From positions 32,580,301 through 32,644,300 of the forward strand of contig OZ020622.1 of NCBI GenBank assembly GCA_963971575.1: 64,000 nucleotides of DNA, given 5' to 3'. Every line of letters starts with the position of its first letter. The first letter of the stretch is position 1. The translations under genes were made by a program, and so were the position numbers. The stretch comes from Liopterus haemorrhoidalis. Taxonomy: Eukaryota > Arthropoda > Insecta > Coleoptera > Dytiscidae. Shown here piece by piece: positions 9,331 through 61,203 of the stretch. Under the pieces are notes generated by a model. It had not been told where the DNA came from. It made no database searches and was given only the letters and a program-made list of their open reading frames with translations.

Positions 9331-10512
9331 GGCTACTCCAAACGTTTCAGAGGAACTAAATAGATTCTTTTTTGTTGTCACGAGCTGACCCTTTAACGAT
9401 CTAAGTGAGCTTCTGCTAAACAAAATGACCAAAAGCTTCATTTAAACGTTAAGAGTTACTAATTTTCAAAATCTAGTTCTGCTTAATTCAAATAAACAGG
9501 CTATAGATTTTGGAAACTAGTAATTTTTATCGATTAAATGATACTTTTGATCTTTGTGTTTAGAAAAAGCCCACTTCAATAATTAAAAAGTTGGCTCGTG
9601 ATAAATTATAAACATAATAGACCGCGAGCTCATGACAGTTTATGGTCTCCTATTTCATACAGCATGCCTTTTGGAGGAGAGAATATTTACCCTGTGACAA
9701 CAAAGAAAGGAGGGTACTAAACCCCTGCACGCTTTCCGGTTAGATGGAAAATTGCATTTCCACTGACACAAAATTTAGTTTTTCTCTGATTTAATAATGC
9801 GGTACGTCTTATCAAAAGAAAGTTAAAACAAACTTAAAATCTTTAAAAATATAGGCATGCGGTTCGCTTGGTCCCAAAGGACTCAAATGGCCACGTGATT
9901 TCGTAATAAAAAAATATATATATTTCCGCGTTTTTATGCAGCATGCCGATGAAAAGAATTAAAGTTTGTGCCATAGAACTCCTATAAAAAAATTGGCATG
10001 CGGCCCTCGTTGGCCCAAGGGTGGAAAATTTCGGAAAAGTTTTGTGAAAATTTTAATCACACAAAATTTTTCCGATATTTTCCACCTTCGGGCCGCATGC
10101 CAATTTTTTTATAGTGGCTTTATGACACAAACTTTAATTATTTTCATCGGCATGCTGTATGAAATCGCGGAAAATCATATTTTTTTATTACAAAATCACG
10201 TGACTGTTTGAGCCCTTTGGGACCCTGCAAATCGCATGCCAATAATTTTTAAGACTTTAAATTTTTTTAACTTTCTTTTGATAAAAGGGCAAGCATTATT
10301 AAATCAGAGTAAAACAAAATTTTGTGTAAGTGGAAATGCAATTTTCCATGTAACCGGAAAGCGTGCAGGGGTTTAGTACCCTCATTTCTTTGTTGTGACA
10401 GGGTAAATATTCTCTCCTCCAAAAGGCATGCTGTATGAAATCGGAGACCATAAACTGTTATGAGCTCCCGGTCTATAAAAATTCCATTTAGTTACGTTTA
10501 GAATATCCTATA
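9331..10512. mobile_element. Mariner-type foldback element, split by a second foldback
   Basis: The left end (CTCCAAACGTTTCAGAGGAA...TTGTCACGAG) matches the left arm of the mariner-type element at 28721. Unlike that copy, this one is palindromic: sequence at 9378-9480 reappears inverted at 9505-9610 and, beyond the inserted foldback, at 10477-10512 (...CATTTAGTTACGTTTAG). The 858-bp palindrome at 9618-10475 therefore sits in its right arm. Degenerate, non-coding. Confidence 0.6.
9618..10475. mobile_element. 858-bp palindromic (foldback) element
   Basis: The two halves are near-perfect inverted copies folding about 10047. Ends are TAGACCGCGAGCTCATGA and its inverted counterpart TTATGAGCTCCCGGTCTA. 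Internal landmarks repeat inverted: CATACAGCATGCC, CCCTGCACGCTTTCCGG and GGCATGCGG. A 3-bp TAA lies on each side (9615-9617 and 10476-10478, allowing one base of ambiguity), compatible with a Harbinger-type TSD. It has no coding capacity. The transposase family is inferred only from the TSD length. Confidence 0.7.
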
Positions 10513-17752: not shown

Positions 17753-18310
17753 TTTCTCCACGACCACTATAGAATTTAACAATTCTAAAACCAATTTTGA
17801 CTACAGAAAGTTAATATTCTAACACAAGAGTTGGAATGTTATTCTAAAGCACTTATCTTCTTATGCATTTTGCGTGTATTTCATTCCATCACTTGTTATG
17901 GAATAACTATTCCATGCTTGTTGTCTTTTGTTTTTGTAGGGTTACATTAAGATATATGCAACGTTTACATTAAATAAATGCAACATAACTTACTAACCTA
18001 AAATAGTGGCCGATGTGCGGCAAATTAAATTAAAATTAAACAAATAATAAATAAAAAAAATTGTTTAATTAATTGATTAATTTGTTATGTAATATAAATT
18101 ATTTGTTAAGATAAAATGTTTGTTAAAATAATTATTTGTTAATTTATTTTTCTTTTTGGTGGTCGTGGAGAAAGTAGGGTCTGTGAATCGGTTGGAATGA
18201 GAAAATTCGTTGTTCGTGGTTCCTCACGCTCGCCTGCGGCTCGCGCTCGGAATATTCCACTCGCATCGAATTTTCTCATTCCAACCTTGTTACAGAATAT
18301 ACTATTCTAA
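17753..18310 (+). mobile_element. Deletion derivative of the tyrosine-recombinase transposon
   Basis: Both ends match the large element at 50356-54105 in opposite orientation. The start (TTTCTCCACGACCAC, then TTGACTACAGAAAGTTAA and ATGCATTTTGCGTGTATTTC) equals the inverted right end at 53935-54104. The finish (GTGGTCGTGGAGAAAGTA, then the hairpin around GGTTGGAATGAGAAAATTCG) equals the inverted left end at 50356-50470. In the middle, AAAATAGTGGCCGATGTGCG at about 18000 matches the recombinase coding sequence for its active-site segment. It is therefore an internally deleted copy about 0.56 kb long, presumably mobilised in trans. Confidence 0.85.
18178..18300. repeat. Terminal hairpin of the recombinase-transposon derivative
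   Basis: TCGGTTGGAATGAGAAAATT and AATTTTCTCATTCCAACC face each other around a GC-rich loop containing CGCTCGCCTGCGGCTCGCGC. GTCTGT/TTACAGA-type bases lie outside. The same hairpin with a shorter loop is at 50362-50456. Confidence 0.85.
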
Positions 18311-36558: not shown

Positions 36559-38895
36559 ATGGCCCCCGGTGGTCGCGGTGGCGACACCGGGAAGCCTACC
36601 GAGGAACCCCCGTCCTTAGGTACAGGCGCTCGACAGTGGTCGAGCCGTACCGCCGGTTCGGGGACCACGGATAGGAGAATCGTCATTTCTCCTGATGTCA
36701 TGCGTAATGTCATCAGGTCTCCTCGTACTCCTGAAGTTCCTGCGGGAGCTTCGGAGAAGGCGAAAGCTGGTGCTGTTAGCACCATTGTTAAGGCCGCGGC
36801 CTCCCTGACTGCCACCGAGCACTCACCATCACCGAGTGGCTCCGGCTTCAGGTCCAGTGCCGCTCAGAGTTCTGATGGTAACATTACCAATGCCATCAGA
36901 TCTCCTAAAAAATCCAGGGCTTCACATAAAGCCATGGAGAAGTCACACGGTGCTCGTGCTTGCACCACCGTGGAGGTCTCGGCTAGTCCTGCGACCCCAG
37001 ACACCCAACCTTCGTCGGGTGCCTCCGGCTCCAGGTCTAGCCCTCGTAAAGCATCACGTACTGATGTTAACTCAGTACGTGATGTCATCAAGTCTCCTTC
37101 AGTTAAGAAGGGGGCCAACGGACGTACCGGCACCGCATCAACATCTTCTGCGGGTACCTCAGCCTCTGGACGACCTTCTTCAGGACGTTCCACGGGCCCC
37201 AGGTCCACCAGGTCGAGCGCTTCCTCAACTTCAGGAAGCCGCTCCCCCACCGACCGATTTAACCGTCCTCAGGGAGGTCGGATGTCCTCTGCCTCCGACG
37301 TCTTCTACAGTGAAGCGTCAGAAGTCACTTCCTCCTGCGCGGAGGAGAGTGACATGGAGATCCAGGTGGATACTCCCAGCAAGCGCCAACGCTCTGACTC
37401 GTCAACGGTCTCGGGCGGTTCCGTGTCGTCCTTGAAACGACCTAAACGGGCCTCCAAGACCCTGACGCCTCAGAGCACATCACCAACTCCGGTCCAGGTA
37501 TCCAATGTCGCCAAACCGGACGACATGGAGGCCTCACCGGTGGCAAAGTCGCCCTTGCCGACTTTGTCTGCTGCCAATCTAGCAAAGTGTCCACCAGTGA
37601 CACTTACTAGTAAGCAGCACTATATGCTATTTAGGAGCCGGTGTGCCCAAGCTGGCATCACCATCCTAAGTGCGCGTAATCTACCATCCGGCATTGTTCT
37701 GCAACCAGCGTGTGTTGCAGACTACCGCAAGGCCACCAAGTTGCTTGGTGACATGCGGGCCGACAAGTCACTACATGACGTTGAATACAACGTCATTCCA
37801 CTCAGGTCCGAACAACCTTTGCGGGTTGTTATTCGCGGATTGCCTGTAGAGATTGCTCTACAGGACATCAAATACGAGCTCAGTCAGCTTGGCTTTGAAT
37901 CAGCCAAACTGACAAGGCTCTACAAGGGACCGATTGGAGCACGCCGAATCCTGCCGTTGGTTATGGTTGAGTTAGCGAGGGGGAAAACCGCTATCTACAA
38001 CCTGAAGTCTCTTCTTCACTTTAAGATCAGAGTGGAGAAGAAAAATCGCACTGACGAGATTAGACAGTGCTACAACTGCCAGGGTTTATATCACACGGCT
38101 AGTGGCTGCCATGCCAAGCCGCGTTGCAACTGGTGCAGTGGTGATCATTCATCACAAAAATGCACCAACAGGAACGAGCCGCCTTGCTGTGTCAATTGCA
38201 AGGCACGTGATTTGCCTGCAACACACACGGCTGGATCTCGCTCCTGTCCATCCAGAGTTTCAGCCAGACGACCTGTCTCGGCTAACAGGCCAGTGGCACG
38301 TACGGTGTACGTGCCGGCACCTCCTCCAGCGACCTCGGCCTGGAACAAGAGACTACCATACGTGGCAGCTCAGCCTGTTCCAGTTGCCGCCAAACCACTG
38401 CCTGCTCGTGTCAAGCAGTCTTCGCCTGCTGTGGCACCTGCCACACATGCAACACCGACCCCTGTTGTTTCGGCATCCGTGCCTGTTATTCCTGCCACAG
38501 GAACAGACGCGGATGGCTTCCAAAAACAGAGGAGGCGTAGAGGGAGGCGTCAGAGTAGCGCAGCTACTGCCTCTACCTCAGCTGTTCCTCCTGTTTCATT
38601 GTCCACAGTGACAGCCACCAAACAACAGGTAACTCAGGCTTCGCGACAGCCAGCCAAGACCTCACCACCTTTGGTGAGACCAGCAGCTCGCCCTCGCAAA
38701 TTCACACCATCGGCGGCGCCTGTGCCGCCTTCTTCTTGTGCTGCGCCAGCAGACGCGCTCAAGATGTTGCAGGAGTTGCTCACGCAAGCAGCCGCTTTGT
38801 TGAGCAACGCCGCGTTGATTATAAATCAACTTTCCCTTCAGCCTGCCTTCTGGTCTCCCATTATTGTACCCCACAATGGCAGACACCAGAACTAG
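36559..38895 (+). CDS. LINE ORF1, Gag-like protein with zinc knuckles
   Basis: A 778-residue protein. The first ~330 residues are low-complexity, Ser/Pro/Arg-rich and probably disordered. A gag-like RNA-binding region follows (LRVVIRGLPVEIALQDIKYE near residue 420). Three Cys/His knuckles come near residues 505-565: CYNCQGLYHTASGC, CNWCSGDHSSQKC and CVNCKARDLPATHTAGSRSC. The C-terminal third is Ala/Pro-rich, ending in a hydrophobic helix-like segment (ALKMLQELLTQAAALL). The ATG at 36559 lies in a GGGAATGG context at the start of the open frame. It should package LINE RNA. It is longer than most Jockey ORF1 proteins because of the N-terminal Ser-rich extension. Confidence 0.85.
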   Translation: MAPGGRGGDTGKPTEEPPSLGTGARQWSSRTAGSGTTDRRIVISPDVMRNVIRSPRTPEVPAGASEKAKAGAVSTIVKAAASLTATEHSPSPSGSGFRSSAAQSSDGNITNAIRSPKKSRASHKAMEKSHGARACTTVEVSASPATPDTQPSSGASGSRSSPRKASRTDVNSVRDVIKSPSVKKGANGRTGTASTSSAGTSASGRPSSGRSTGPRSTRSSASSTSGSRSPTDRFNRPQGGRMSSASDVFYSEASEVTSSCAEESDMEIQVDTPSKRQRSDSSTVSGGSVSSLKRPKRASKTLTPQSTSPTPVQVSNVAKPDDMEASPVAKSPLPTLSAANLAKCPPVTLTSKQHYMLFRSRCAQAGITILSARNLPSGIVLQPACVADYRKATKLLGDMRADKSLHDVEYNVIPLRSEQPLRVVIRGLPVEIALQDIKYELSQLGFESAKLTRLYKGPIGARRILPLVMVELARGKTAIYNLKSLLHFKIRVEKKNRTDEIRQCYNCQGLYHTASGCHAKPRCNWCSGDHSSQKCTNRNEPPCCVNCKARDLPATHTAGSRSCPSRVSARRPVSANRPVARTVYVPAPPPATSAWNKRLPYVAAQPVPVAAKPLPARVKQSSPAVAPATHATPTPVVSASVPVIPATGTDADGFQKQRRRRGRRQSSAATASTSAVPPVSLSTVTATKQQVTQASRQPAKTSPPLVRPAARPRKFTPSAAPVPPSSCAAPADALKMLQELLTQAAALLSNAALIINQLSLQPAFWSPIIVPHNGRHQN

Positions 38896-41569
38896 AGCGC
38901 GCCCTGCTTGCCTAACCATCTGTGCTTGGAACGCGGATGGTATTCGCTCTAAACGGGACGAGTTAGAGCTATTCGCTAGTGATCACAACGTTGATGTGAT
39001 ACTAGTTTGCGAGTCGTTCCTGAAGCCTGCAATGAATGTGAATCTTCGCAATTATTGCTGCTATAGGAACGACCGACTAACGGCCCGGTGTGGAGGTACT
39101 GTCATCTATGTCAGATGCAGTATTGACCATCATCAGGCCTATGATCCCCCTCTAAGCCAGATGGAGGCTACAACGATCGAGCTTACTACAAGCTTCGGAC
39201 CTGTGTTTCTGACGGCGGCTTATAAACCGCCACAGAACCGACTTCTTGCCGAGGACTTGGAGAAGTTGCTCGATCGCCGAGGTCCGGTCATTATCGGCGG
39301 CGATCTCAACTCCAAACACCCTCAGTGGAACAGCCGTGTTCATAACACGAACGGACGTACGTTGCGGCGCTTTGCAGACCGCACGGGTGTGATTGTTACG
39401 GCTCCTAAGGATCCTACTCACTACCCGCGTGTGCCAACTCACAAGCCGGACGTGATTGATGTCTTTATTCTTAAAAACATCTATCACCCCTGTGATGTTT
39501 ACACACTTTCCGAACTGAGTTCAAACCACAATCCTGTGATCTTGGACTTGAATGGACCGTCAAATCACATTGCAGAGATAACTCTCTCCAAAGTGCACTG
39601 GCCTACTTTCTCCAGACTGGTGGAAGAACGATCTGATTTGAACATTAAGATCGCTACTCCTGAACAGCTGGACTCGGCAGTTGAACGGTTTACCGTCATG
39701 CTGAGCGAAGCAGCGAAGGAAGCCACCGTCAAGAAGACCATTCGTCCTCAGGCCAAGCGTCTACCTGGACGTATCCTTTCGCTCATTCTGGATCGGAACC
39801 GCGTTCGCCGCAGCTGGCAGCGTAATCGCGATCCGGTGGACAAATCCAGAATGAACCGGCTGGACCGTTTAGTTCGCTTGGCTATGGCTGAACACCGCAA
39901 CGATGAATGGTCTCGTGTTCTCGAGCAGCTGTCACCCGACGACCGCTCCCTCTGGAAAATGACCAGGGCTTTGGGTAGGAAGCGTGGTAGGATTCCTCCC
40001 ATTATCACACCGACAGGGGTGGTGTACGATCGCAAGAGCAAGGCTGAGGCATTTGCCGACAGCTTGCAGGCACAGTGCAGCCCTAACGAGGATATTGTTG
40101 AACCTGATTTTGTTCGAGAAGTGGGTGAGAAACTTCAATCGCTAGCCGATGAAGATTTCAATCCCGATAATCACGACTTCTGCACTCCTGGAGAAGTCGC
40201 AGCGATTATCAAACGTCTGAAAATCAGGAAAGCTCCCGGTCCGGATGGTATTTCTCACAAGATGATTAAGAACCTGGGTAGGAAGGCACTGCTCTATCTT
40301 ACACTGCTTTTTAACTCATCTCTGAAATTCAGCCACTTCCCAAGTCCTTGGAAAAAAGCGGACGTAATTCTGTTTCCTAAAGCACAGAGCGATCGCTCTC
40401 TCGCTAAGAATTATCGTCCAATTTCTTTGTTGTCTTGTCTTGGCAAGATACTCGAGAAGCTTATTCTAAGCAGGCTTCAGTTCCATGCTGACTCAAACAG
40501 TTTGATACCTGACGAGCAACATGGCTTCCGACAAGGACATTCTACTGTCCATCAACTCATGCGCGTCACTGAGTTTGTCACTGACGGTTTCAACAGAAAC
40601 TTTTCTACCGGTGCAGTCTTTGTAGATATTTCTAAGGCCTTTGATCGCGTTTGGCACGCAGGTCTTGTCTACAAACTGCACTGTTTAGATTTTCCACCTG
40701 CTCTCATCAGGATGATCGCCTCGTATCTGACCAACAGGGTACTGAGAATCAAGATAGATGAAATTCGCTCATCGTGGAGACCGGTTGAAGCCGGTGTGCC
40801 ACAAGGCTCTCTGTTGTCGCCATTGTTGTACGCTCTGTACACCAATGACATGCCGACATCGGAAGGAACGATTAAGTGCCAGTATGCTGATGATACAGCT
40901 TACCTAACTCGCTCGTGGGACCCAGCTCTAATCTCTCAACGACTCCAGCACGCCTGCTCGAGTCTTGAGAATTGGTGCAAACGCTGGCGTGTCGCGGTGA
41001 ATGGGGCCAAATCTAAGGCAATGCTTTTCACTAGAAAGTCTAGACTTCCGTCGGGTGCGGTTAGACTGTTCGGTGAAGACATTCCCTGGTGTAAAAAGGT
41101 CAAATATCTTGGGCTCATTTATGATCCCAAATTGGTCTGGAAGGAGCATATTAATGACTCTATTACCAGAGCGCGGAAGTCACTAGGCATGCTCTTTTCT
41201 CTCACCAACAGAAAAAGCAGTCTAAGCATTTCTAATAAGACCAGGATCTACACTTCTGTGATCCGACCTATACTGACGTACGCTTCTTGTGTTTGGGCTT
41301 ACTCCAGTACCGCTAACATCAAGCGGTTACAGGTGTTCCAAAACAAGTACTTACGTCGGGCCTCCGGCGCTGCCTGGTTTGTGCGCAACGTCGACATCAT
41401 GAACGATTTGGGCGTGCCGAGTGTGGAAGACTTTATTCGCGCTAGCGCGGAGAAGTTCTTCCAGATCGCTCAAGTGCACCCCAATCCTACTATAGCATCG
41501 TCCGTCGACTACGTTCCGGCCGATGTATGGAAACATCGCAGACCGCAATGTTTCTTGACAGACTGTTGA
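38876..41569 (+). CDS. LINE ORF2, APE endonuclease and reverse transcriptase
   Basis: An 897-residue protein starting at ATG 38876, 20 bases before the end of ORF1, so translation probably depends on reinitiation or leaky scanning; an in-frame ATG at 38864 is an alternative. Residues ~12-240 are an APE endonuclease: CAWNADGIRSK, CESFLKP, GGDLNSKHPQWNS, KPDVIDVF and LSSNHNPVI. RT covers about 440-760: RKAPGPDGISH, NYRPISLLSC, FVDISKAFDRVWHAGL, GVPQGSLLSPLLYALY, catalytic YADD near residue 670, and KYLGLIYDPKLVWKEHI. The tail holds the TYASCVWAYSS and LQVFQNKYLRRASGA motifs typical of the Jockey group. There is no RNase H. All catalytic motifs look intact, so the enzyme may be functional. Confidence 0.92.
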   Translation: MADTRTRARPACLTICAWNADGIRSKRDELELFASDHNVDVILVCESFLKPAMNVNLRNYCCYRNDRLTARCGGTVIYVRCSIDHHQAYDPPLSQMEATTIELTTSFGPVFLTAAYKPPQNRLLAEDLEKLLDRRGPVIIGGDLNSKHPQWNSRVHNTNGRTLRRFADRTGVIVTAPKDPTHYPRVPTHKPDVIDVFILKNIYHPCDVYTLSELSSNHNPVILDLNGPSNHIAEITLSKVHWPTFSRLVEERSDLNIKIATPEQLDSAVERFTVMLSEAAKEATVKKTIRPQAKRLPGRILSLILDRNRVRRSWQRNRDPVDKSRMNRLDRLVRLAMAEHRNDEWSRVLEQLSPDDRSLWKMTRALGRKRGRIPPIITPTGVVYDRKSKAEAFADSLQAQCSPNEDIVEPDFVREVGEKLQSLADEDFNPDNHDFCTPGEVAAIIKRLKIRKAPGPDGISHKMIKNLGRKALLYLTLLFNSSLKFSHFPSPWKKADVILFPKAQSDRSLAKNYRPISLLSCLGKILEKLILSRLQFHADSNSLIPDEQHGFRQGHSTVHQLMRVTEFVTDGFNRNFSTGAVFVDISKAFDRVWHAGLVYKLHCLDFPPALIRMIASYLTNRVLRIKIDEIRSSWRPVEAGVPQGSLLSPLLYALYTNDMPTSEGTIKCQYADDTAYLTRSWDPALISQRLQHACSSLENWCKRWRVAVNGAKSKAMLFTRKSRLPSGAVRLFGEDIPWCKKVKYLGLIYDPKLVWKEHINDSITRARKSLGMLFSLTNRKSSLSISNKTRIYTSVIRPILTYASCVWAYSSTANIKRLQVFQNKYLRRASGAAWFVRNVDIMNDLGVPSVEDFIRASAEKFFQIAQVHPNPTIASSVDYVPADVWKHRRPQCFLTDC

Positions 41570-44355: not shown

Positions 44356-44532
44356 TAGGGTGACCAGATTTCAGTGAAGGGAAACCGGGACACAGGAAAA
44401 AAAAAGGTCCTCACCACTCAGATTCAAAGTGAAAAGCAAAGAGATTCAAAAACCGGGACAATCGGGCGTCCCGAGAACAGTTTTCGGGACACCGGGACAA
44501 TTGACCGAAAACCGGGACGAATGGTCACCCTA
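44356..44532. mobile_element. hAT-type MITE, 177 bp
   Basis: The ends TAGGGTGACCA and TGGTCACCCTA are flanked by the exact 8-bp TSD CCTTAAAA (44348-44355 and 44533-44540). The interior has repeated CCGGGACA blocks and AAAAAGGTCCTCACC. It inserted into the first, partial unit of the tandem repeat that follows. Confidence 0.9.
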
Positions 44533-44540
44533 CCTTAAAA

Positions 44541-45090
44541 GCACTATCTTAGGTTATGGTTGATAACTGTTTTTTTTTTTTTTTTTATAAACCACCTAAA
44601 AATAAATTGTATTTTAACTGTTCTGTGCAGGGCTAGGGACAGTGATTCACCTTAAAAGCACTATCTTAGGTTATGGTTGATAACGGTTTTTTTTTTTTTA
44701 TAAACCACCTAAAAATAAATTGTATTTTAACTGTTCTGTGCAGGGCTAGGGACAGTGATTCACCTTAAAAGCACTATCTTAGGTTATGGTTGGTAACTGT
44801 TTTTTTTTTTTTTATAAACCACCTAAAAATAAATTGTATTTTAACTGTTCTGTGCAGGGCTAGGGATAGTGATTCACCTTAAAAGCACTATCTTAGGTTA
44901 TGGTTGATAACTGTTTATTTTTTTTTATACGCCACCTAAAAATAAATTGTATTTTAATTGTTCTGTACAGGGCTAGGGACAGTGATTCACCTTAAAAGCA
45001 CTATCTTAGGTTATGGTTGATAACTGTTTATTTTTTTTTTTTTATAAACCACCTAAAAATAAATTCTGTTTTAAAAGTTCTGCACAGTCC
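44541..45090. repeat. Tandem repeat, ~113-bp unit, nearly five copies
   Basis: Each unit contains CTATCTTAGGTTATGGTTGATAACTG, a T-run of variable length, then ACCACCTAAAAATAAATT and GTGCAGGGCTAGGGA. The last copy diverges. A first partial unit precedes the MITE at 44356. Confidence 0.95.
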
Positions 45091-47089: not shown

Positions 47090-50064
47090 GTCTCAGGTAA
47101 CTGGAACGCCTCCAGTGTAGGTTGGAAGATGTTGGAAGGGGAGTTTGTGTATAAATGTATGTAGTGAAGGGTGTCTAGTTATGTGTTTAGTTAAGGGGTT
47201 GGAAGAGAGTTGTGTGGTGTAAAATTTGTGCGAAATTTTGTTAATGTAGTCGGTAATTAGGGGTCAGTTAGTTCATGTAGTTCAGTAATTCTGGTGTATC
47301 TGTCAGCGTTAGTTACAAGTCTTAAACATTTGTTTTGAAGTCTTTGAAGTTGTATTTTTGTAATTCGAGTCGCGACACACCAAGCTGGGGCTGCATAAGT
47401 CATGGTTGGTCTGATAATAGTGGTGTAAATTAGTTTTTCTGTGTGAGTGTGCTGTGTTTGTTTAATAAAGGGTATAGTTTTTTAACGACATAGTGTGCTT
47501 TGATTATTGTGTTGTGAATGTTTTGGCTGAAGGTTAATGTTTTGTCTAGTTGTACGCCAAGATATTTTACTGTTTTAGTCAAAGTCGGGTTTGTCTTATG
47601 GTCATAAATTTTGAGTTTAGAAAAAACAGTATTATTAGTAAATTTGCGGGAGAAAACTATGGTTTTAGTTTTTTGTGAATTTATGTTTATCTTCCATAAA
47701 TCCCAGTAGTCCTGTAGTTTGTCGATGTGTAATTGTAATTGTCTTTTAGCTACCTCTGCAGTGAAAGGGCATAAATTGCCGTATCATCAGCAAAGAGGGC
47801 AATTTTTGTCTTGTCAAACAAAGGAATGTCATAAATGTAGAGAGTGAAGAGTTTGGGGCTGAGGACACTGCCTTGGGGAATGCCTGAAGATATGAGATGT
47901 GGGCAGGAAAAGGTATTGTTTATCTTCACTCTGAATGAACGGTTTGATAAATATGAATTAATGGTTAGTATTAATAATTTAGGAAATTTGTAGTGAATTA
48001 GTTTGCTAATGAGCCCTACTACCCATACCTTGTCAAAGGCACGTTCAATGTCTAGTAAGGCCATCGCAGTGACTTTTCCTTTGTTGAATTCAGCAGTTAC
48101 GTCATAAACTATACGTACTACTTGCTGAACAGTATTGTGTCTGGTTCTGAAGCCGAACTGATGTGGTATTGTAATTTTGTGTGCCACATCAAATTCTAGT
48201 AGTCTGGAAAGAATTATTTTTTCTGTTATTGTGGAAAGAGAATTTAATAGGCTAATGGGGCGATAGTTATTAGGGTCCGTATGATCTTTATTTGGTTTAG
48301 GAATTGGGACGATGGTAGCCACTTTCCATTGTGAAGGGAAGTGATGGAGTTTAATTATGGCGTTGATAATATAAGTAAGCTGAACTATAGCTTTTTGGGA
48401 TATATTTTTGAATAATTTATTGTCAAGTAGATCAGGACCAGGAGCTTTTTGATTGGGAAGTGTTTTAATTAAATTTGTAATTTCTAAAGGAGAAGTGAGT
48501 AATTTGATGAGGCGATTTTTGGATGTATTGTGAGAGGTGTTTAAATATTCAATTGTGGAGTCTGTAATATTTTTTTGTTTAGAGGTGTTGTTTGGATTTA
48601 TGTGATGCACTCTTTCGAAGGCATCAGCTATAGCCTCAGCCTTCTGAGAGTCTGTGATGTGTTCCGTGTTATTATGTTTTAATGTGGGTATGCGTGAGTT
48701 CGGCTTCTTTCTCATTAAGATATAAGGAAGTAAGTTTTTGTTGGAATATGTTATTAGTGTGATTTTTAATGAGTGTGCGTATGTGTCTGTTAAGTGCATT
48801 AAGTTGTGTTCTGTGTTGAGGGCTTTGTGTACGTTGCCATAGTTTTCTCGCCGCATTGCGTTTAGTTATTATGTCAAGTATGTCTTGAGGTAGTCTTTCT
48901 GTATTTGTATTAATTGTTAGTGATTTTGAATGTTTAGTCTTAGCAGTATCGAGTGCGTCTGTCAGTAATTTATCTTCATCCTCCAGTTGTTGGGTAGTCA
49001 GAATTTTATTAATAATTTTGATTAGATTGTCAAGTGTACTTCTAAATTTTTTCCAGTCAGTGTCTTTGTATGAAGTTATGGTCTTGGTTATATTTTCGAA
49101 GTTTTGTTTATGTAATTTAAATACAATAGGGTCATGGTCAGAACTAAGTTCATGTAATGTAGTCGGGCCAGTTACATTATTAATATTTTTATTAATTATA
49201 AAGTCGATAGAGGATGGAGTGGAACCGTTCGGAGGAAAGTGAGTCGGTTTGTCCGGACACATAATAATGGTATTATGACTCAGCGAATGAGTGTATATTG
49301 CTGAGCCACTAGTGTTGTTAGTGAGATTGCAGCCCCAACTTGTGTGTCTAGCCAGGGCCATGTGCGAGAAGAGCCGCGGGGCCTGCTGTTCAGATCGAAG
49401 TGAGGAGCAAAAAAAAGGTTCCCAACTCCATGCGCGGAGCTTGTTGTTGACCGCGGGGCCTGCTGTTCAGATCCAAGTGAGGAGCAAAACAAAAAGGTCC
49501 TCAACTCCATGCACGGGGCTTGTTGTTGACCGCGGGGCCTGCTGTTCAAATCCAAGTGAGGAGCAAAAAAAAAAGGTCCTCATCTCCATGCGCGGGGCCA
49601 TGTGCGCCTACACATGCTGCACATGCCTCGCGCCGGCCCTGTGTCTAGCATTGAAGTCGCCAACTAGTAGTGTTTTGCTGTGTGTTAAAAGTGAGTTTAG
49701 ATCTGCGTGTGTGATTTTATTTTTAGGTTTATTGTAAGCCGAGATTATGTGGGTGTTGTCTGTAAGTTTGATTGTTAATGTTTCAAGTGTAGAGTTATGT
49801 TTTTAGTATGTGTGGAATGTTGTGTTTCACTAGTATGGCGACTCCTCTAGCTGCAGAGTCATCATTGTCATCCGCGTCGTTTGGTCGGTCCCGTCTGTAA
49901 ATTTTAAAGTTTCTAATTGAAAATTTGTCTTTTGCTTTAAGTCTGGTTTCGTTAAGTAGTAAAATGTCAATGTCATGTAAGTTAATGAAGTGTTTTAGTT
50001 CGTGAGTGCGTAGACCTACACTGTTTGCGTTCCAAGAACAGATGTTAATGTTCTTATATGCCAT
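47090..50064 (-). pseudogene. LINE ORF2, APE endonuclease and RT
   Basis: From ATG 50064: NINICSWNANSVGLRTHELK, LLNETRLK, RGVAILVKH, VGDFNARHTSWGCN (split at ARH by the MITE at 49353-49641), FPPNGSTPSSIDFII and LSSDHDPIVFKL. A connector shifts frame near 48760. RT reads QKAPGPDLLDNKL, NNYRPISLLNSL, HQFGFRTRHNTVQQV, LLDIERAFDKVW, SSGIPQGSVLSPKLFTLYIY and LFADDTAIYAL. Another shift near 47755 leads to QLQLHIDKLQDYWDLW and KYLGVQLDKTLTF, after which stops accumulate. No RNase H. Jockey group. Confidence 0.88.
49353..49641. mobile_element. hAT-type MITE with internal ~70-bp tandem repeats
   Basis: The ends CAGGGCC and GGCCCTG are flanked by the exact 8-bp TSD TGTCTAGC (49345-49352 and 49642-49649). 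Three GC-rich units (GCGGGGCCTGCTGTTCARAT...GTGAGGAGCAAAA...GGTCCTCA) fill the middle. Removing the element and one TSD copy rejoins the endonuclease motif GDFNARHTSWG of the host LINE in frame. Confidence 0.93.
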
Positions 50065-50355
50065 ATTGTCCCAGATTCTGAGAAAATTGAACAAATGTCA
50101 TAAATTTTTCTTCACTACTATTGCAGTTAACGAGTTGGGCGTTTAGGTCTCTCATGGCAGCCGGCATACCACTCAGATTCACCAGTTGATTCATTTTTTT
50201 TTCATTTCTGAAAAATTAGAGTTGATATTAATGTTTTCATTAAAATTAGGGGATACATTTTCTTGCTTGTTTGAAAATGTAGGGATTTCATTTATTTCTT
50301 TTGTTTGGGTCGGTGGAGTACGAAGTACTGGTCTTATTGGTGGAAGTGAGGGAAT
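50054..50355 (-). pseudogene. LINE ORF1, C-terminal part
   Basis: The minus strand reads IPSLPPIRPVLRTPPTQTKE, then an Asn-rich segment. After a one-base shift it continues NQLVNLSGMPAAMRDLNAQL and ends NLGQYGI at 50054. It is the continuation of ORF1 interrupted at 54105, overlapping the ORF2 start by about 11 bases. Confidence 0.7.
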
Positions 50356-50361
50356 AGTACA

Positions 50362-50456
50362 TTCTGTAACAAAGTTTGAATGAGAAAATTCGATGCGTGA
50401 GGAACCATGAGATGAGCAACGAATTTTCTCTTCCAACCGAGTTACAGACCGTACTT
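50362..50456. repeat. Terminal hairpin of the recombinase transposon
   Basis: GTTACAGAATG-side sequence TTTGAATGAGAAAATTCGAT and the opposing CGAATTTTCTCTTCCAACCG form an imperfect stem around a ~30-base loop. The same structure with a longer GC-rich loop lies at 18178-18300, so it belongs to the element. It might be a recombination or replication signal; that is inference. Confidence 0.8.
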
Positions 50457-50642
50457 TCTCCACGACCACCAGCAAAAAAAAAAAGAAAGAAATTTAACAA
50501 ATAATTATTTTAACAAATAATTTATATTACATGACAAATTAATTAATTAATTAAACAATTTTAAACATAATTTTTATTTTACATATAATTTACACTTTTG
50601 GTTACATTTATAGCGAAAGCTGTATAAATATAACTAATTATT

Positions 50643-51812
50643 TTACATATTAATAGTTATATTTATAGTGTTTTCGCAGTTGTTAAAATTAAATATGGGA
50701 GTTTTTTCAATGTTTTCTGATTGTGTTTCAATGCTTTCTGATGTAACGGTATAATTAGTTGAAGTTGAAAGAGGAAGATTATGTCGTTGGTTGCTGGATG
50801 TTACTGGATGTCGGTTACATCCAGTAACCGACGACATAATTTTGTTCGCTATGTTTAATCGATTTTGTAAAGAATTATCAATGTAACCTTCAGCTACTTC
50901 ACTACTACGCCATCCACCGTGTCTTTTAAGGGTTTGTAGATCGGCACCTGCATCTGCTAAAATAGTGGCCGATGTACGGCGAAAGCAATGACCAGTATAA
51001 TTTTCTGGGGTTTCTAAGTTTAAAAATAATGCAATCTGCTTAGGCATATTACCCAATTTGTTTTGCCCGATTACCTGTCGGGTACATTTCTCTTTTTGGA
51101 AATTTAGAAAAAATGATCTGACGGAACACCTTGTGGTCTTAAAGACATATATTCTTTAACAATATTATAAAAATCTCCCGTTATAGTAAATTTTCTTGGT
51201 TTGTTTGTTTTTGTGTCAGGAATTTTAATGAAAAATGTAGTACCCAAATCTTTCATATCATTTATTTTTAGGTTATATAATTCACTTTTTCTGCATGCTC
51301 CCATAATTCCAATTATAAGTGCAGTCTAAAAAAAAAATTACGTAATTAAATTTCAATTAATAGATATTTTTATGAAAATTATTACCTTTGTTGCCAAGTA
51401 TATTTGATCTGGAGAATTTTGTAAAAAGTTTTTAACGTTTTCAGTCGTAAAAGTTTTAGATTTTTTATCTACATATGTGTCGGATTGGCGTTTTAAAAAC
51501 GATCTGAGTTTTTTATAATATGAAATGTCAATTACATGTTAATTGCGTAAATTAATATTAATTGTTGATTTCAATATCGAATATATTTTCCAAAGGGTAG
51601 ATGATTTGAATTTTGTTGAAAGTTCATAAAAGTAACTTAAAATTACATTTTCCGAAAATGATACAGTGTTTTTTTCTTTTCTCCAGTCAATAAAATGTGA
51701 ATAATATTTTTCGTATACACTTTTTGATTAGTGTTAATAATTTCTAGATATTACATCAATTCTGGTGGTGTGAGGGTGTCCATATTTTCATTCGAATCAA
51801 AGTCGCTCATTT
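50643..51812 (-). pseudogene. Tyrosine recombinase of Crypton-like transposon, decayed
   Basis: From ATG 51812 (MSDFDSNENM) the frame continues through one stop into an N-terminal SAM-like core-binding region (VYEKYYSHFIDWRKEKNT). A second stop follows, then KTFTTENVKNFLQ. A 60-bp intron (51326-51385) leads into the catalytic domain. MGACRKSELYNL holds the first active-site Arg. A frameshift in a T run follows SDHFF, and the frame then reads GNMPKQIALFLNL. GHCFRRTSATILADAG gives H-x-x-R, RHGGW the later His and EGYIDNS the nucleophilic Tyr. This R...H-x-x-R...H...Y set defines tyrosine recombinases. The C-terminal tail is Asn/Thr-rich. Two stops and one frameshift make this copy inactive unless edited or misassembled. 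Confidence 0.85.
51326..51385 (-). other. Probable 60-bp intron in the recombinase gene
   Basis: On the minus strand it starts AAAG/GTAATA and ends in a 12-T tract followed by AG/ACTGC. Removing it joins YLATK to TALIIGIMGACRKSEL in frame, matching the expected recombinase sequence. A spliced intron implies the gene was expressed in a eukaryotic nucleus. Confidence 0.75.
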
Positions 51813-53920
51813 TTATATTTAAACTATGAAAACACAATAAAGTAAATTAACATTAAAATTACTTTTTAGTTTACTTACATTTAGTTCGGTTTACTTTATA
51901 TTTTACTACGATTTTAGTAAGTTATATGTTTTTTTTAAATAAGAGATGCAATAGTCTTCGTACGCGCAAAGATACTGCCTGCACTACTTTTCAGCGCGGA
52001 GTAATGCATACCAGTCGCTCATTTTTATATTTAAACTATGAAAACACAATAAAGTAAATTAACATTAAAATTACTTTTTAGTTTACTTACATTTAGTTCG
52101 GTTTACTTTATATTTTACTACGATTTTAGTAAGTTATATGTTTTTTTTAAATAAGAGATGCAATAGTCTTCGTACGCGCAAAGATACTGCCTGCACTACT
52201 TTTCAGCGCGGAGTAATGCACACCAGTCGCTCATTTTTATATTTAAACTATGAAAACACAATAAAGTAAATGAACATTAAAATTACTTTTTAGTTTACTT
52301 ACATTTAGTTCGGTTTACTTTATATTTTACTACGATTTTAGTAAGTTATATGTTTTTTTTAAATAAGGGATGCAATAGTCTTCGTACGCGCAAAGATACT
52401 GCCTGCACTACTTTTCAGCGCGGAGTAATGCACACCAGTCGCTCATTTTTATATTTAAACTATGAAAACACAATAAAGTAAATGAACATTAAAATTACTT
52501 TTTAGTTTACTTACATTTAGTTCGGTTTACTTTATATTTTACTACGATTTTAGTAAGTTATATGTTTTTTTTAAATAAGGGATGCAATAGTCTTCGTACG
52601 CGCAAAGATACTGCCTGCACTACTTTTCAGCGCGGAGTAATGCACACCAGTCGCTCATTTTTATATTTAAACTATGAAAACACAATAAAGTAAATTAACA
52701 TTAAAATTACTTTTTAGTTTACTTACATTTAGTTCGGTTTACTTTATATTTTACTACGATTTTAGTAAGTTATATGTTTTTTTTAAATAAGAGATGCAAT
52801 AGTCTTCGTACGCGCAAAGATACTGCCTGCACTACTTTTCAGCGCGGAGTAATGCACACCAGTCGCTCATTTTTATATTTAAACTATGAAAACACAATAA
52901 AGTAAATGAACATTAAAATTACTTTTTAGTTTACTTACATTTAGTTCGGTTTACTTTATATTTTACCACGATTTTAGTAAGTTATATGTTTTTTTTAAAT
53001 AAGAGATGCAATAGTCTTCGTACGCGCAAAGATACTGCCTGCACTACTTTTCAGCGCGGAGTAATGCACACCAGTCGCTCATTTTTATATTTAAACTATG
53101 AAAACACAATAAAGTAAATTAACATTAAAATTACTTTTTAGTTTACTTACATTTAGTTCGGTTTACTTTATATTTTACCACGATTTTAGTAAGTTATATG
53201 TTTTTTTTAAATAAGAGATGCAATAGTCTTCGTACGCGCAAAGATACTGCCTGCACTACTTTTCAGCGCGGAGTAATGCATACCAGTCGCTCATTTTTAT
53301 ATTTAAACTATGAAAACACAATAAAGTAAATTAACATTAAAATTACTTTTTAGTTTACTTACATTTAGTTCGGTTTACTTTATATTTTACCACGATTTTA
53401 GTAAGTTATATGTTTTTTTTAAATAAGAGATGCAATAGTCTTCGTACGCGCAAAGATACTGCCTGCACTACTTTTCAGCGCGGAGTAATGCATACCAGTC
53501 GCTCATTTTTATATTTAAACTATGAAAACACAATAAAGTAAATTAACATTAAAATTACTTTTTAGTTTACTTACATTTAGTTCGGTTTACTTTATATTTT
53601 ACCACGATTTTAGTAAGTTATATGTTTTTTTTAAATAAGAGATGCAATAGTCTTCGTACGCGCAAAGATACTGCCTGCACTACTTTTCAGCGCGGAGTAA
53701 TGCACACCAGTCGCTCATTTTTATATTTAAACTATGAAAACACAATAAAGTAAATTAACATTAAAATTACTTTTTAGTTTACTTACATTTAGTTCGGCTT
53801 AATTTATATTTTACCACGATTTTAGTAAGTTATATTGTTTTTTTTTTTTTTAAATAAGGGATGCAATAGTCTTCCTACGCGCAAAGATACTGCCTGCACT
53901 ACTTTTCAGCGCGGAGTAAT
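51801..53920 (-). repeat. Ten 212-bp tandem repeats upstream of the recombinase
   Basis: Units start at 51801, 52013, 52225, 52437, 52649, 52861, 53073, 53285, 53497 and 53709 (plus coordinates), a constant 212-bp period with only scattered substitutions. On the minus strand each unit runs from GGAGTAATG-complement sequence through CGCGCGTA-like and AT-rich DNA and ends ATGAGCGACT, the start of the recombinase. The unit nearest the gene supplies the real start codon. The array therefore looks like repeated promoter-leader monomers; the outermost unit has a few extra bases. Confidence 0.95.
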
Positions 53921-54105
53921 GCATACTAGTAGTGAACAAACATGGAACATTTATTCCATAACAAGTGATGGAATGAAATACACGCAAAATGCATAAGAAG
54001 ATAAGTGCTTTAGAATAACATTCCAACTCTTTTGTTATAATGTTAACTTTCTGTAGTCAAAATTGGTATTAGAATTGGCAAATTCTATAGTGGTCGTGGA
54101 GAAAG

Positions 54106-55137
54106 TCTTTTTCCAGGTTGCTTGTTATTGGAGTAGGGAGTAGTGTTCTTCTTTGTTCAGTTCCATTCCAGGGGTTGTGTGCTGGAAGAGGTGCCGGAAT
54201 AAATCTAGTCGTATGCATATTTTGTTGACTGCTCTTTCTTGAATTTTTGATGTTTTCAATTCTTCTTAGATATGTTGGACAGGTAGTAGAGTTTGCAGTA
54301 TGTGGTCCTTGGCAGTTGGTACATTTGATAATTGGGTTAGGTGTACACTCACTAGTTAAATGATCACCTGCACATTTCAAGCATTTTGGTTTAAGGTAAC
54401 AATTAGATGTCGCATGCCCCAGGCTTGACATCTATGGCATTGTATAATTACTTTTTTGTTGTAGCATCTTTCCCAGTTTATCTTAGTATAAGCTATGAAT
54501 TTAATTTTTTCAATATCTGAGAGATTAGTTGAGTTATCTACAATTATTAAATAGTAAGGCCTTCTAGTTGCTCTCATTTTTGTGACAGCTATAACTTTGA
54601 TATTATTTTCTAAGATTGTTTAATTTCATCAAGTGTGATGTCACAGTCTAGTCCTTTTAGTACAAATGCATGCGATTTTAGATGTGCAGGCGTAAAACTA
54701 AAGTGTTCAATTTTAGCATGTCTGATAATGTTAAGAAGTTGGTCTCTTTCTTTATGTTCATGTAAGAAAATATTTGCATTTTCCTTAGTGTATTTAAAAT
54801 GGAATCTTTTTCCAGCTACTTTGGATATATTGTCTACAAGGTCTTTATTATTGGTAGCCTTACCTCTTATTACAATTGGTGGTGGTTTTTTCATCTCATT
54901 TTTCTTATTAATGTTTTCTAGTGTCTCATCATCGAGATTTTCAAGAGCAGTGTATTTGTTATTTGTTTCCATGGTGTTGTTTATGTTCAAATTTTTATTT
55001 TGACAGGATTTGGATTCAAATGCTTTAGTTAAATCATCTAAAATAATTATGTTTGAGGTATTTACAAGGCTGTTTTCCGTTGTCATTGATTCATTACTAT
55101 CAGTAGAGTCACTGCTTTCATTTTCTGTTTCGTTCAC
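54106..55137 (-). pseudogene. LINE ORF1, N-terminal part with zinc knuckles
   Basis: From ATG 55137 an acidic Ser/Thr/Asn-rich N-terminus (MNETENESSDSTDSNES) precedes a gag-like RNA-binding region: PPPIVIRGKATNNKDLV, SFTPAHLKSHAFVLKGLDCD. After a shift near 54600 it reads RRPYYLIIVD and WERCYNKKVIIQCHRCQAWG. After another shift at 54420 it continues HATSNCYLKPKCLKCAGDH, CTNCQGPHTANSTTC. This gives three CCHC-type knuckles in series. The frame runs to SNLEKDF at the transposon junction near 54105. Confidence 0.8.
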
Positions 55138-56681: not shown

Positions 56682-56842
56682 TGTCACGCCTAGGTTGGTT
56701 TTGGGGGGTTTGTATGAATAAAAGAATATAAATTCTATATACTAATTTATTACTAGAAATAAAAGAATACAATTTCTAATTACTAACAGTACTGGCCACG
56801 CCAGGTTAAGGGTGTATAAATTATATAGCACCTTAATACAAT

Positions 56843-56889
<47 letters not shown>

Positions 56890-57390
56890 CTTCTAATAAG
56901 TTATATTATAGTGACACAATAATTGAATTAACTAATTAATTCCGGATCGTAAGAGTTTTACTTAAATGGAATAAATTCCATTAAAGTTGTGAGACACATC
57001 TGGAGCAAATACAAAAATATAATTTTAAACTGTACTTACATAACCACGGCTTTGTAGGCCCATTTTGGTAAATGCACAATTGGTAATAGTCACAAGAGTA
57101 CTGATTACTAATTACTACTTCTTACTTCCTTTTCTTTAAGAACTTTTAGTTCTTTATTTATGAAATATATAAAAACAATCCGTGGAAGAATTTCATGACA
57201 AGAGTTACGTGTTAAAACACGGGTCAGTTTAGTGCATAGTAAGTTATTCCTAAGATGTGGATGCCCTGTATCCGTGACAATCTGATAATTTATAAATTAA
57301 CTAAATTTGTAAATTAACAGAGTTGTATTTAGTTTAATTTGTATTTAAATTCATTTATAATAATATATAAATTATTTCATATATTTGACA
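56682..57390 (-). repeat. 3' LTR
   Basis: A 709-bp repeat, TGTCACG...TTGACA, differing from the 5' LTR mainly in the length of an internal (TA)n run and a short GGGCTCTAGGTAGGGC segment found only in the other copy. Confidence 0.93.
56846..56888. repeat. (TA)n in the 3' LTR
   Basis: About 43 bases of TA, longer than the equivalent run in the 5' LTR at 60662-60679. Confidence 0.95.
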
Positions 57391-58078
57391 TTACCCCCTC
57401 CTTCAAATGCCATGGCCCCACATGGCCATCTTTCCACCTTCTTCCATCATAAAAGGTCATAACTACGACAACTTGCATTCTCATATTTGTTACATTTTGT
57501 TGTATTTTGCTGTCCAGTTGGTTATCTCTCAGTACCAAATTATTTACCTTCTCTTCTGTTGCGATACCACAGCACCAATTGGATGCGTCTCCAATAAAGT
57601 TAAGTGCCCTTTTTTCTCTTTTAACGTTGTCAATTTCTTCATTCCCTTCTTGTCCTTTGTATTCGAATGCTGCTGATAAATTGTCGGTCGTCAGTACGAA
57701 ATATTTTGGATCTAATAAGTTTTGAAATTCGTTCAGTGCCACCGATGTCGTTGAGATTAATTCGTTTAACTGTGTTGCCATTTTGTATTCCTTGGCGTTG
57801 TTTTCTTGACTGTGTGGATTCGAGGTACTATCTTCTTTTCTTGATTTTTCTATTTTGTTATTCCCCACCTGTTTGCAGAAGTGGCTGGAGAATGTTTCTT
57901 TATCTTCGGTATATCTAATGTCTGTCCATGTCCCAGTGTACGTCAATGGAATGGATGCCTCGTAAATTACAGTTTCTGGTAACTGTTTCCAATACGCCCC
58001 TGCTACTATCTTTGCTGCGATTTCGCCTTCAATGACATTGACACTGATAATAATGAACAATCTAAAATTCAAAGTCAT
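57377..58078 (-). pseudogene. env-like glycoprotein, N-terminal fragment
   Basis: A 233-codon minus-strand frame with a hydrophobic N-terminus like a signal peptide (MTLNFRLFIIISVNV). An ectodomain segment contains YEASIPLTY. Near residue 155 a furin-type site KREKR is followed by a hydrophobic ALNFIGD stretch like a fusion peptide. This layout matches F-type Env proteins of errantiviruses and their baculovirus relatives. After about 210 residues the frame runs into the polypurine tract and LTR. The rest of the ectodomain, the transmembrane anchor and the tail are therefore deleted, and the copy cannot make a functional glycoprotein. Confidence 0.75.
57391..57405 (-). promoter_or_regulatory. 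Polypurine tract
   Basis: On the minus strand GAAGGAGGGGGTAA lies directly before the 3' LTR, the normal site for plus-strand DNA priming in LTR elements. Confidence 0.8.
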
Positions 58079-60496: not shown

Positions 60497-61199
60497 TGTC
60501 ACGCCTAGGTTGGTTTTGGGGGGTTTGTATGAATAAAAGAATATAAATTCTATATACTAATTTATTACTAGAAATAAAAGAATACAATTTCTAATTACTA
60601 ACAGTACTGGCCACGCTAGGTTAAGGGTGTATAAATTATATAGCACCTTAATACAATACAATATATATATATATATATAACTTCTAATAAGGGCTCTAGG
60701 TAGGGCTTAGGTTCAACCTAGTGACACAATAATTGAATTAACTAATTAATTCCGGATCGTAAGTTTTACTTAAATGGAATAAATTCCATTAAAGTTGTGA
60801 GACACATCTGGAGCAAATACAAAAATATAATTTTAAACTGTACTTACATAACCACGGCTTTGTAGGCCCATTGTTGGTAAATGCACAATTGGTAATAGTC
60901 ACAAGAGTACTGATTACTAATTACTACTTCTTACTTCCTTTTCTTTAAGAACTTTTAGTTCCTTATATATGAAATATATAAAAACAATCCGTGGAAGAAT
61001 TTCATGACAAGAGTTACGTGTTAAAACAGGGGTCAGTTTAGTGCATAGTAAGCTATTCCTAAGATGTGGATGCCCTGTATCCGTGACAATCTGATAATTT
61101 ATAAATTAACTAAATTTGTAAATTAACAGAGTTGTATTTAGTTTAATTTGTTTTTAAATTCATTTATAATAATATATAAATTATTTCATATATTTGACA
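60497..61199 (-). repeat. 5' LTR
   Basis: A 703-bp repeat with TGTCACGCC and TTTGACA ends, aligned along its length with 56682-57390. It is the upstream LTR for the minus-strand element. Confidence 0.93.
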
Positions 61200-61203
61200 A
61201 TAT

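What the first reader, a model, noticed from the sequence alone, without database searches (positions are those of the whole stretch)
50356..54105. Tyrosine-recombinase transposon with a promoter-like tandem array
A Crypton-like recombinase (R, HxxR, H and Y all visible) sits downstream of ten exact 212-bp repeats. Every repeat ends in the recombinase start context ATGAGCGACT. Each unit therefore looks like a complete promoter-leader ending at the start codon, and the gene-proximal one supplies the real ATG. Promoter monomers are known from some LINEs; I am not aware of them as a described trait of tyrosine-recombinase DNA transposons. Array length could tune expression or arise by recombinase-driven or replication-slippage expansion.
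Basis: partly seen in the sequence, partly recalled or inferred. Interest (0 to 1): 0.88.

Follow-up and report, generated by a model that had tools for sequence, protein, structure and literature searches.

The report
Crypton copy with amplified leader repeats
In a genome that is likely an insect's, a broken copy of a Crypton-like jumping gene carries ten tandem copies of the stretch just before its recombinase gene, where the other copies examined carry no more than one, so the pile-up is likely a local accident; the ends of related elements share a conserved hairpin that is predicted to be part of the recombination site.

Summary
The array is real: ten 212-bp units at 51801-53926, nine differing pairwise by 0-4 bases and one diverged unit at the far edge. 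Each ends ten bases into a tyrosine-recombinase gene on the minus strand. The element (50352-54104) interrupts a Jockey-type LINE; its recombinase is Crypton-like but broken (two stops, two frame changes). Genome searches show the unit is the element's own leader: at 20 of 20 other loci read it is present once (full length in 2, partial in 18), always beside other element parts; eight full-length copies of a young sister family have no array. The unit is bounded by a 3-bp match (ACT), so microhomology duplication plus unequal exchange explains the array and why every unit ends at the start codon. "Promoter array" as a family trait is not supported. The more interesting result lies at the ends: three recombinase families here share a 3' hairpin (133-134 nt when complete, with compensatory changes), preceded by an inverted motif that in two of them matches the 5' terminus. 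I saw no such plan in the Crypton passages I read. A head-to-tail joint sequence occurs at 81 places; in the one folded, it completes a palindrome around the presumed crossover.

The parts
50352..54104 (-). Crypton-like tyrosine-recombinase transposon, 3753 bp, gene sense on the minus strand
   Evidence: Both ends shared with the copy at 17753-18307 and with other genomic copies; interrupts a LINE ORF1 whose homologues continue across the site
51801..53708 (-). Nine near-identical 212-bp units: leader plus first 10 bases of the recombinase gene
   Evidence: pairwise 0-4 differences of 212
53709..53926 (-). Distal unit, diverged, that keeps states shared with L031/L032
   Evidence: 3.5% from the other nine; alignment columns 52 and 90-91
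50643..51810 (-). Tyrosine-recombinase pseudogene, ATG at 51810; two premature stops and two frame changes
   Evidence: (PF00589, 1.1e-6)
51326..51385 (-). Intron, 60 bp, also present in copies L031 and L032; same position as in the sister family
54088..54104 (-). 5' terminus of the element in gene sense (TTTCTCCACGACCACTA)
   Evidence: sister family 5' terminus TTTTTCCTACGACTA
50453..50469 (-). Inverted inner copy of the 5' terminus, just before the 3' hairpin
   Evidence: pair I16 (17 nt, 100% complementary to 54090-54106)
50352..50454 (-). 3'-terminal hairpin in gene sense (103 nt here, apex deleted; 133-134 nt in complete copies)
   Evidence: (z -6.4)
17753..18307 (+). Second, non-autonomous copy in the window; no array, no recombinase except a 27-bp inverted fragment (17998-18024); full hairpin with apex
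54105..55137 (-). Upstream half of the ORF1 (zinc-knuckle gag) of the Jockey-type LINE that received the insertion; itself frame-shifted
47750..50351 (-). Rest of the LINE: end of ORF1 and ORF2 with reverse transcriptase
   Evidence: (RVT_1 1.1e-27)

Best explanation
A broken copy of a Crypton-like tyrosine-recombinase transposon, inserted in a Jockey-type LINE, carries ten tandem copies of its own 212-bp leader, and the array likely arose by tandem duplication between two 3-bp matches followed by unequal exchange. Shown: the other copies with recombinase sequence that I read have one unit; the unit is bounded by ACT on both sides (CTACT before the unit, GCGACT at its end), the unit-unit joint is GCGACT then GGTATGC or GGTGTGC, and the downstream breakpoint falls 10 bases inside the gene, which is why every unit ends at the start codon. 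Shown: two pairs of neighbouring units are identical (u3=u4, u7=u8) and the edge unit is the most diverged, the pattern that unequal exchange leaves. Inferred: the first duplication is about as old as this copy's own lineage, so it may predate insertion, and growth to nine units came later. Inferred: the array is a passive by-product in a dead copy, not a regulator. Inferred for the living family: the recombinase moves a circle whose 3'|5' joint lies in one arm of a long palindrome, with a mirror of the joint in the other arm.
For: Unit search of the own genome: array only here, 39 other single places (40 of 199 candidates scored). 20 of 20 loci read (L011-L030, three of which are L031-L033 again) have the unit once, in element context. 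One unit directly before recombinase sequence in L031, L032, L033. No ~212-bp array in any of 17 loci, in nine sister-family loci or in 1.4-kb stretches upstream of the gene at three further loci. Unit variants and shared states. Window-lineage substitutions 17 of 1104 sites against 3.5% between distal and proximal units. Broken gene. Element limits, LINE interruption. Background: the window and the loci hold many other tandem arrays, including 79 bp x 2.9 in the same LINE.
Against: Only 40 of 199 candidate unit places were scored and only 20 of the 39 other places were read, so an array of strongly diverged units elsewhere could be missed. Most of the other loci (18 of 20) hold only part of a unit, and only three besides the window keep much recombinase sequence next to it, so the comparison set for whole elements of this family is small. 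A 3-bp match is weak evidence for the breakpoint mechanism. Dating rests on a handful of substitutions and on the assumption that exchange did not erase differences. Promoter activity was not tested.
Confidence: 0.85

Rival explanations
1. The array is a working set of promoter monomers, as in mouse L1, that raises or tunes recombinase expression.
For: Each unit spans the leader up to the ATG; tandem 5' monomers are known in mouse L1 (PMC9022269, search listing and start of abstract).
Against: Other copies read have one unit or part of one; the gene downstream is broken; each of nine upstream units adds a 12-codon upstream ORF. A candidate 55-nt leader intron that could remove these is weak: 25 of 1000 shuffles have one, the antisense strand has one too, and the real gene intron fails the same rule.
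Confidence: 0.06
2. The multi-unit array formed in a mobile source element and was carried here by transposition.
For: Distal-to-proximal divergence (3.5%) is about twice the window lineage's own branch (17 of 1104), so the first duplication is roughly as old as the lineage.
Against: No second array-bearing insertion was found; the nine proximal units are much closer to each other (0.92%).
Confidence: 0.12
3. The recombinase itself drove the expansion by acting at unit borders.
For: The element encodes a site-specific recombinase, and a head-to-tail joint of whole elements recurs in this genome.
Against: The recurrent joint falls at the element ends (ACTATT|CTCCACGAC), not at the unit border, which shares only ACT with its start and shows no such site.
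Confidence: 0.03
4. Assembly artefact.
For: Near-identical repeats can be miscounted.
Against: The units carry distinct variant combinations and a diverged edge unit; the assembly is contiguous (1.02 Gb in 91 contigs; the contigs fetched from run up to 247 Mb), which suggests long reads. Raw reads were not available.
Confidence: 0.03

Closest known systems
CryptonI elements of insects (Kojima and Jurka 2011, PMC3212892; abstract, passages and section 8 read)
   Same: Encodes only a tyrosine recombinase with R, H, R, Y; insect relatives; no C-terminal extra domain; non-autonomous derivatives that share both ends
   Different: That paper reports no terminal repeats, direct or inverted, in animal Cryptons; here the ends carry an asymmetric inverted repeat and a long terminal hairpin. 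No leader array is mentioned in what I read of it
Helitron2 ends (Bao and Jurka 2013, PMC3627910; passages read; authors' names recalled)
   Same: Asymmetric terminal inverted repeat: one copy at the 5' end, the other just upstream of a 3' hairpin
   Different: No Rep/helicase here; a Crypton-type recombinase instead; hairpin 133-134 nt when complete, against a 3' repeat about 20-30 bp from the end in Helitron2
Integron attC sites (PMC2727003, PMC3053210, PMC11641012; search listing and start of abstracts only)
   Same: A tyrosine recombinase and a palindromic, folded site with little sequence conservation
   Different: Here a eukaryotic transposon; no evidence that a single strand is the substrate
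Mouse L1 promoter monomers (PMC9022269; search listing and start of abstract only)
   Same: Tandem units upstream of the first ORF
   Different: There a general feature of mouse L1 5' ends; here found in one dead copy of a DNA transposon

Membership tests
CryptonI | Tyrosine recombinase with R-H-R-Y | tested here: met
   PF00589; R154, H255, R258, Y290 invariant in 18 aligned proteins; best solved match XerA. In the window copy the gene is broken, so this holds for the read-through and its relatives
CryptonI | No reverse transcriptase, DDE transposase or Rep/helicase in the element | tested here: met
   the only ORF of 100 aa or more inside 50352-54104 is the recombinase piece 50643-51056; the LINE ORF1 end overlaps the right border
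CryptonI | No GCR1_C or other C-terminal domain | tested here: met
   only PF00589 above its cut-off in the recombinase pieces and in four relatives
CryptonI | Found in insects | tested here: met
CryptonI | Clusters with known CryptonI elements in a recombinase tree | not testable with these tools
   The Repbase reference elements are not held
CryptonI | No terminal repeats (reported for animal Cryptons) | tested here: inconclusive
   No plain terminal inverted repeat or clear target duplication seen, but an asymmetric 17-bp inverted repeat and terminal hairpin
Helitron2 | Rep/helicase protein | tested here: not met
   only recombinase ORFs in the window element; in the 2034-bp sister element only the two recombinase exons and one 78-aa frame exceed 70 aa
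Helitron2 | Asymmetric inverted repeats with a 3' hairpin | tested here: met
   for the window family and the sister family
L1-type promoter monomers | Tandem units shared by many copies | tested here: not met
   no second array found
L1-type promoter monomers | Promoter activity of the unit | not testable with these tools
   No RNA data
Satellite DNA | Arrays of the unit at many places without link to the recombinase element | tested here: not met
   one array, 39 single places; 20 of 20 loci read in element context

The most novel reading that the evidence does not exclude
Insect Cryptons recombine at a folded, palindromic site. The circle joint (3' end ACTATT joined to the 5' end, TTTCTCC) lies in one arm of a ~160-nt palindrome whose other arm holds a mirror copy of the same joint, with a conserved apex at a fixed 52-53 nt before the 3' terminus; the recombinase reads the folded structure, much as integron integrase reads attC. 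The genome holds 1,398 exact copies of the apex 14-mer and 81 matches to the head-to-tail joint, and the recombinase of a sister family looks uninterrupted once its intron is removed, so the reaction is directly testable.
Probability: 0.35. Interest if true: 0.75.

Novelty: new variant of a known kind. Interest (0 to 1): 0.47.

Why it matters
The array itself is a warning: a repeat ending at a start codon can look like designed promoter monomers and still be a chance duplication in a dead copy. The ends matter more. Crypton termini have been hard to define (PMC3212892, PMC8969392, passages read), and how these eukaryotic recombinase transposons choose and cut their sites is open. A terminus with a compensating hairpin, a fixed ruler distance and a recurrent head-to-tail joint gives a concrete site to test, and a way to find such elements and their non-autonomous derivatives from their ends.

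Tried and rejected
Bacterial-style promoter scan of the array: 28 sites against 10.9 in shuffles, but this only reflects AT-rich repeated units and a promoter type of no relevance here. Rfam (gathering thresholds) and tRNA scans of the window: nothing. Phage collection with DNA of the element, prokaryote genome contigs and viral contigs with the recombinase alignment: no relatives. Trace of the array unit inside the non-autonomous window copy: not significant (8 to 25 of 200 shuffles as high, four comparisons). Leader intron in the unit: weak. Target preference (AAAWTA before the 5' end in gene sense) rests on 13 left and 16 right flanks, from which rows with unclear ends were dropped, and on eight sister-family insertions. 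The C16 family (41% identity) shows none of the end motifs within 1 kb downstream, although one 140-nt window there folds at -28.2 kcal/mol, so the end architecture is not shown for all recombinase families here. Genome searches with the two element ends as DNA (window 53927-54110 and 50345-50470) did not complete, so the number of copies by ends is not known. Searches for prior description of Crypton arrays, hairpins or insect Crypton ends; the listings and the passages that I opened (PMC3212892, PMC3627910, PMC8969392, PMC5844308) do not describe them for Cryptons, but most of the listed papers were not opened, and subscription papers and Repbase were out of reach.
Full report
What is there. 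TRF finds one 212-bp array of ten copies at 51801-53930. On the minus strand each unit runs from GGT(A/G)TGCATTACTCC to ATGAGCGACT (the distal one starts one base later), and the last unit runs into a recombinase gene with its ATG at 51810. The nine proximal units differ pairwise by 0-4 of 212 bases, the distal one from them by 6-8 of 211. So 'ten exact repeats' is close but not right.

The gene. A piece of it matches the Phage_integrase family. A read-through query finds 513 proteins, the best a 60%-identical firefly protein; the species named among the 120 listed hits are insects, by recall. An 18-protein alignment has the R, H, R and Y that I take as catalytic. A profile of it matches XerA in the PDB. 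The window copy is broken by two stops and two frame changes and has a 60-bp intron that L031 and L032 share.

Limits of the element. A second copy lies in the window at 17753-18307, with both ends but no array and no gene apart from a 27-bp inverted fragment. I fetched 17 loci from the own genome; 16 of them carry one or both end regions, and L033, a truncated copy, carries neither. The element interrupts a Jockey-type LINE: relatives of its ORF1 continue from one side of the insertion to the other.

Is the array a trait? The own genome is 1.02 Gb in 91 contigs. A search with the unit gave 49 matches, ten of them this array and 39 at separate places (40 of 199 candidates scored). I read 20 of those 39 as loci L011-L030: each has the unit once (full length in L011 and L012, partial in 18, in L018 as two non-overlapping pieces), and each has other element parts beside it. 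Copies L031, L032 and L033, which are L011-L013 with longer flanks, have one unit directly upstream of recombinase sequence. None of the three has an uninterrupted gene. A recombinase search (122 matches, 111 of 674 candidates scored) turned up a sister family at about 56% identity, nine loci of which (L051-L059) I hold; L055 is incomplete, and the eight others are about 2034 bp from end to end and contain no array. Stretches of 1.4 kb reaching upstream of the gene at three further loci (L060-L062) hold only a 4-base repeat. The array is therefore private to this copy, as far as these searches reach.

How it arose. Single-copy relatives show the sequence before duplication: CTACT then GGTATGC at the start of the unit in L031 (CTACAA in L032), GCGACT then TNTGATTCG-like sequence at its end. 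The unit-unit joint is GCGACT then GGT(A/G)TGC, so the two sides share ACT. The start-codon ending of each unit then follows from where the right-hand breakpoint fell. The distal unit keeps bases shared with L031 and L032 that the nine others have lost. The nine differ by 0.92% on average, the distal unit from them by 3.5%, and other copies' units from them by 5.1-9.1%. The window lineage has 17 private substitutions in 1104 gene-region sites, L031 23 and L032 50. This fits an early duplication followed by later unequal exchange, with the usual diverged edge. It is an inference from few changes.

Does it act as a promoter array? I cannot exclude it, but nothing found here supports it. The gene is dead in this copy. 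Each of the nine unit-unit joints opens a 12-codon reading frame, MSDW(C/Y)ALLRAEK, so transcripts from upper units are predicted to be poor messages. A possible leader intron is not convincing.

The ends. In gene sense the element starts TTTCTCCACGACCACTA and ends in a hairpin closing with AATGTACTATTC (many other copies AATATACTATTC). Directly before the hairpin sits an inverted copy of the start (17 bp). The sister family has the same plan with other letters: start TTTTTCCTACGACTAG, inverted inner copy TAATCGTAGGAAAA, then a hairpin ending AATATACTATT. A third family (C84, C12) has the inner motif, hairpin and end; its 5' end was not found in L060. The C16 family has none of these motifs within 1 kb. 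Complete hairpins are 133-134 nt in all three families; C84 and several copies of the first family are shorter, and the window copy is 103 nt and has lost the apex. I folded 22 hairpins, 12 of the first family (those whose two limits were clear), eight of the sister family and two of the third: 20 were lower in energy than all 100 shuffles; L032 (17 of 100 as low) and the truncated L045 (49 of 100) were not. Sister copy L056 was dropped because its end differs by one base, and L055 was not tried. On an alignment of ten of the 22 (five short copies, L035, L037, L038a, L040 and L045, and seven repeated sister copies left out), 92.2% of cells pair, 13 of 27 pairs have changes on both sides against 4.6 in shuffles, and none of 500 shuffles reaches the observed values; sliding the partner by 1-3 columns drops pairing to 27-48%. 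Seven of the ten rows are one family and the structure was predicted from the same rows, so these counts are not independent events.

Ruler and joints. The apex TCGCCTGCGGCTCG occurs 1,398 times in the genome, the backward control 0 times; I have not read those places. In loci L031-L066 and the window there are 13 distinct apices (15 rows, two of them repeats), and 12 have the 3' terminus starting 52-53 nt after the apex with at most one mismatch; one in L031 does not. In L034 and L057 one element lies head-to-tail in front of another with the joint ACTATTCTCCACGAC. Genome-wide the 19-mer ATATACTATTCTCCACGAC has 81 matches, 45 exact and 36 with one mismatch, control 0. Only two of the 81 places were read, so how many are independent joinings, and how many are copies of one joined pair, is not known. 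The L034 joint folds as one long palindrome through the joint (z -9.0), because the inner inverted copy mirrors the joint: inner GTACTTTCTCCACGACCAC, joint ATACTATTCTCCACGACCAC. I read this as a recombination site whose mirror lies in the other arm of the palindrome. That the recombinase uses it, or that it folds in the cell, is not shown.

Comparison. Kojima and Jurka report no terminal repeats in animal Cryptons, and a curation guide gives a short direct repeat as the only distinguishing feature of Crypton termini. The nearest published end plan that I saw is that of Helitron2, but no Rep/helicase is present here. My searches of open papers showed no description of this plan for Cryptons; Repbase and most subscription papers were not searched, and most listed papers were not opened. 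The claim of CryptonI membership rests on the recombinase and its insect relatives, not on a tree with the reference elements.

Verdict. The finding as given is mostly explained: a private leader duplication in a dead Crypton copy. The end architecture found on the way is the part worth following.

Noticed in passing
window 17753-18307: Non-autonomous relative of the element; it and L034, L036, L042 and L030 share a 26-27-bp inverted fragment of the recombinase gene, which suggests one derived subfamily.
   Followed up: partly
G000, whole genome: Hairpin apex 14-mer 1,398 exact matches and head-to-tail joint 81 matches (up to one mismatch), control 0 in both: elements with these ends seem very abundant.
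   Followed up: partly
L051-L059: Sister Crypton-like family with near-identical copies (about 99% over 2 kb where complete) and a two-exon recombinase; looks recently active.
   Followed up: partly
window 56682-57393 and 60497-61202: Direct repeat pair, 94.7% identical over about 710 bp with starts 3.8 kb apart, possibly the long terminal repeats of a retroelement; an ORF lies just inside (57377-58078).
   Followed up: no
window 36559-41569: GC-rich LINE-like stretch with two long ORFs (778 and 901 aa).
   Followed up: no
window 9617-10476: Inverted repeat of about 430-bp arms, 86% identical, nearly head to head.
   Followed up: no
window 44532-45082 and 49374-49598: Other tandem arrays (113 bp x 4.8; 79 bp x 2.9, the latter inside the same LINE); with arrays in the loci they suggest that local tandem duplication is common here.
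   Followed up: no
L031 3771-4498: Nested pieces of element ends in opposite orientation next to the single-unit copy.
   Followed up: no
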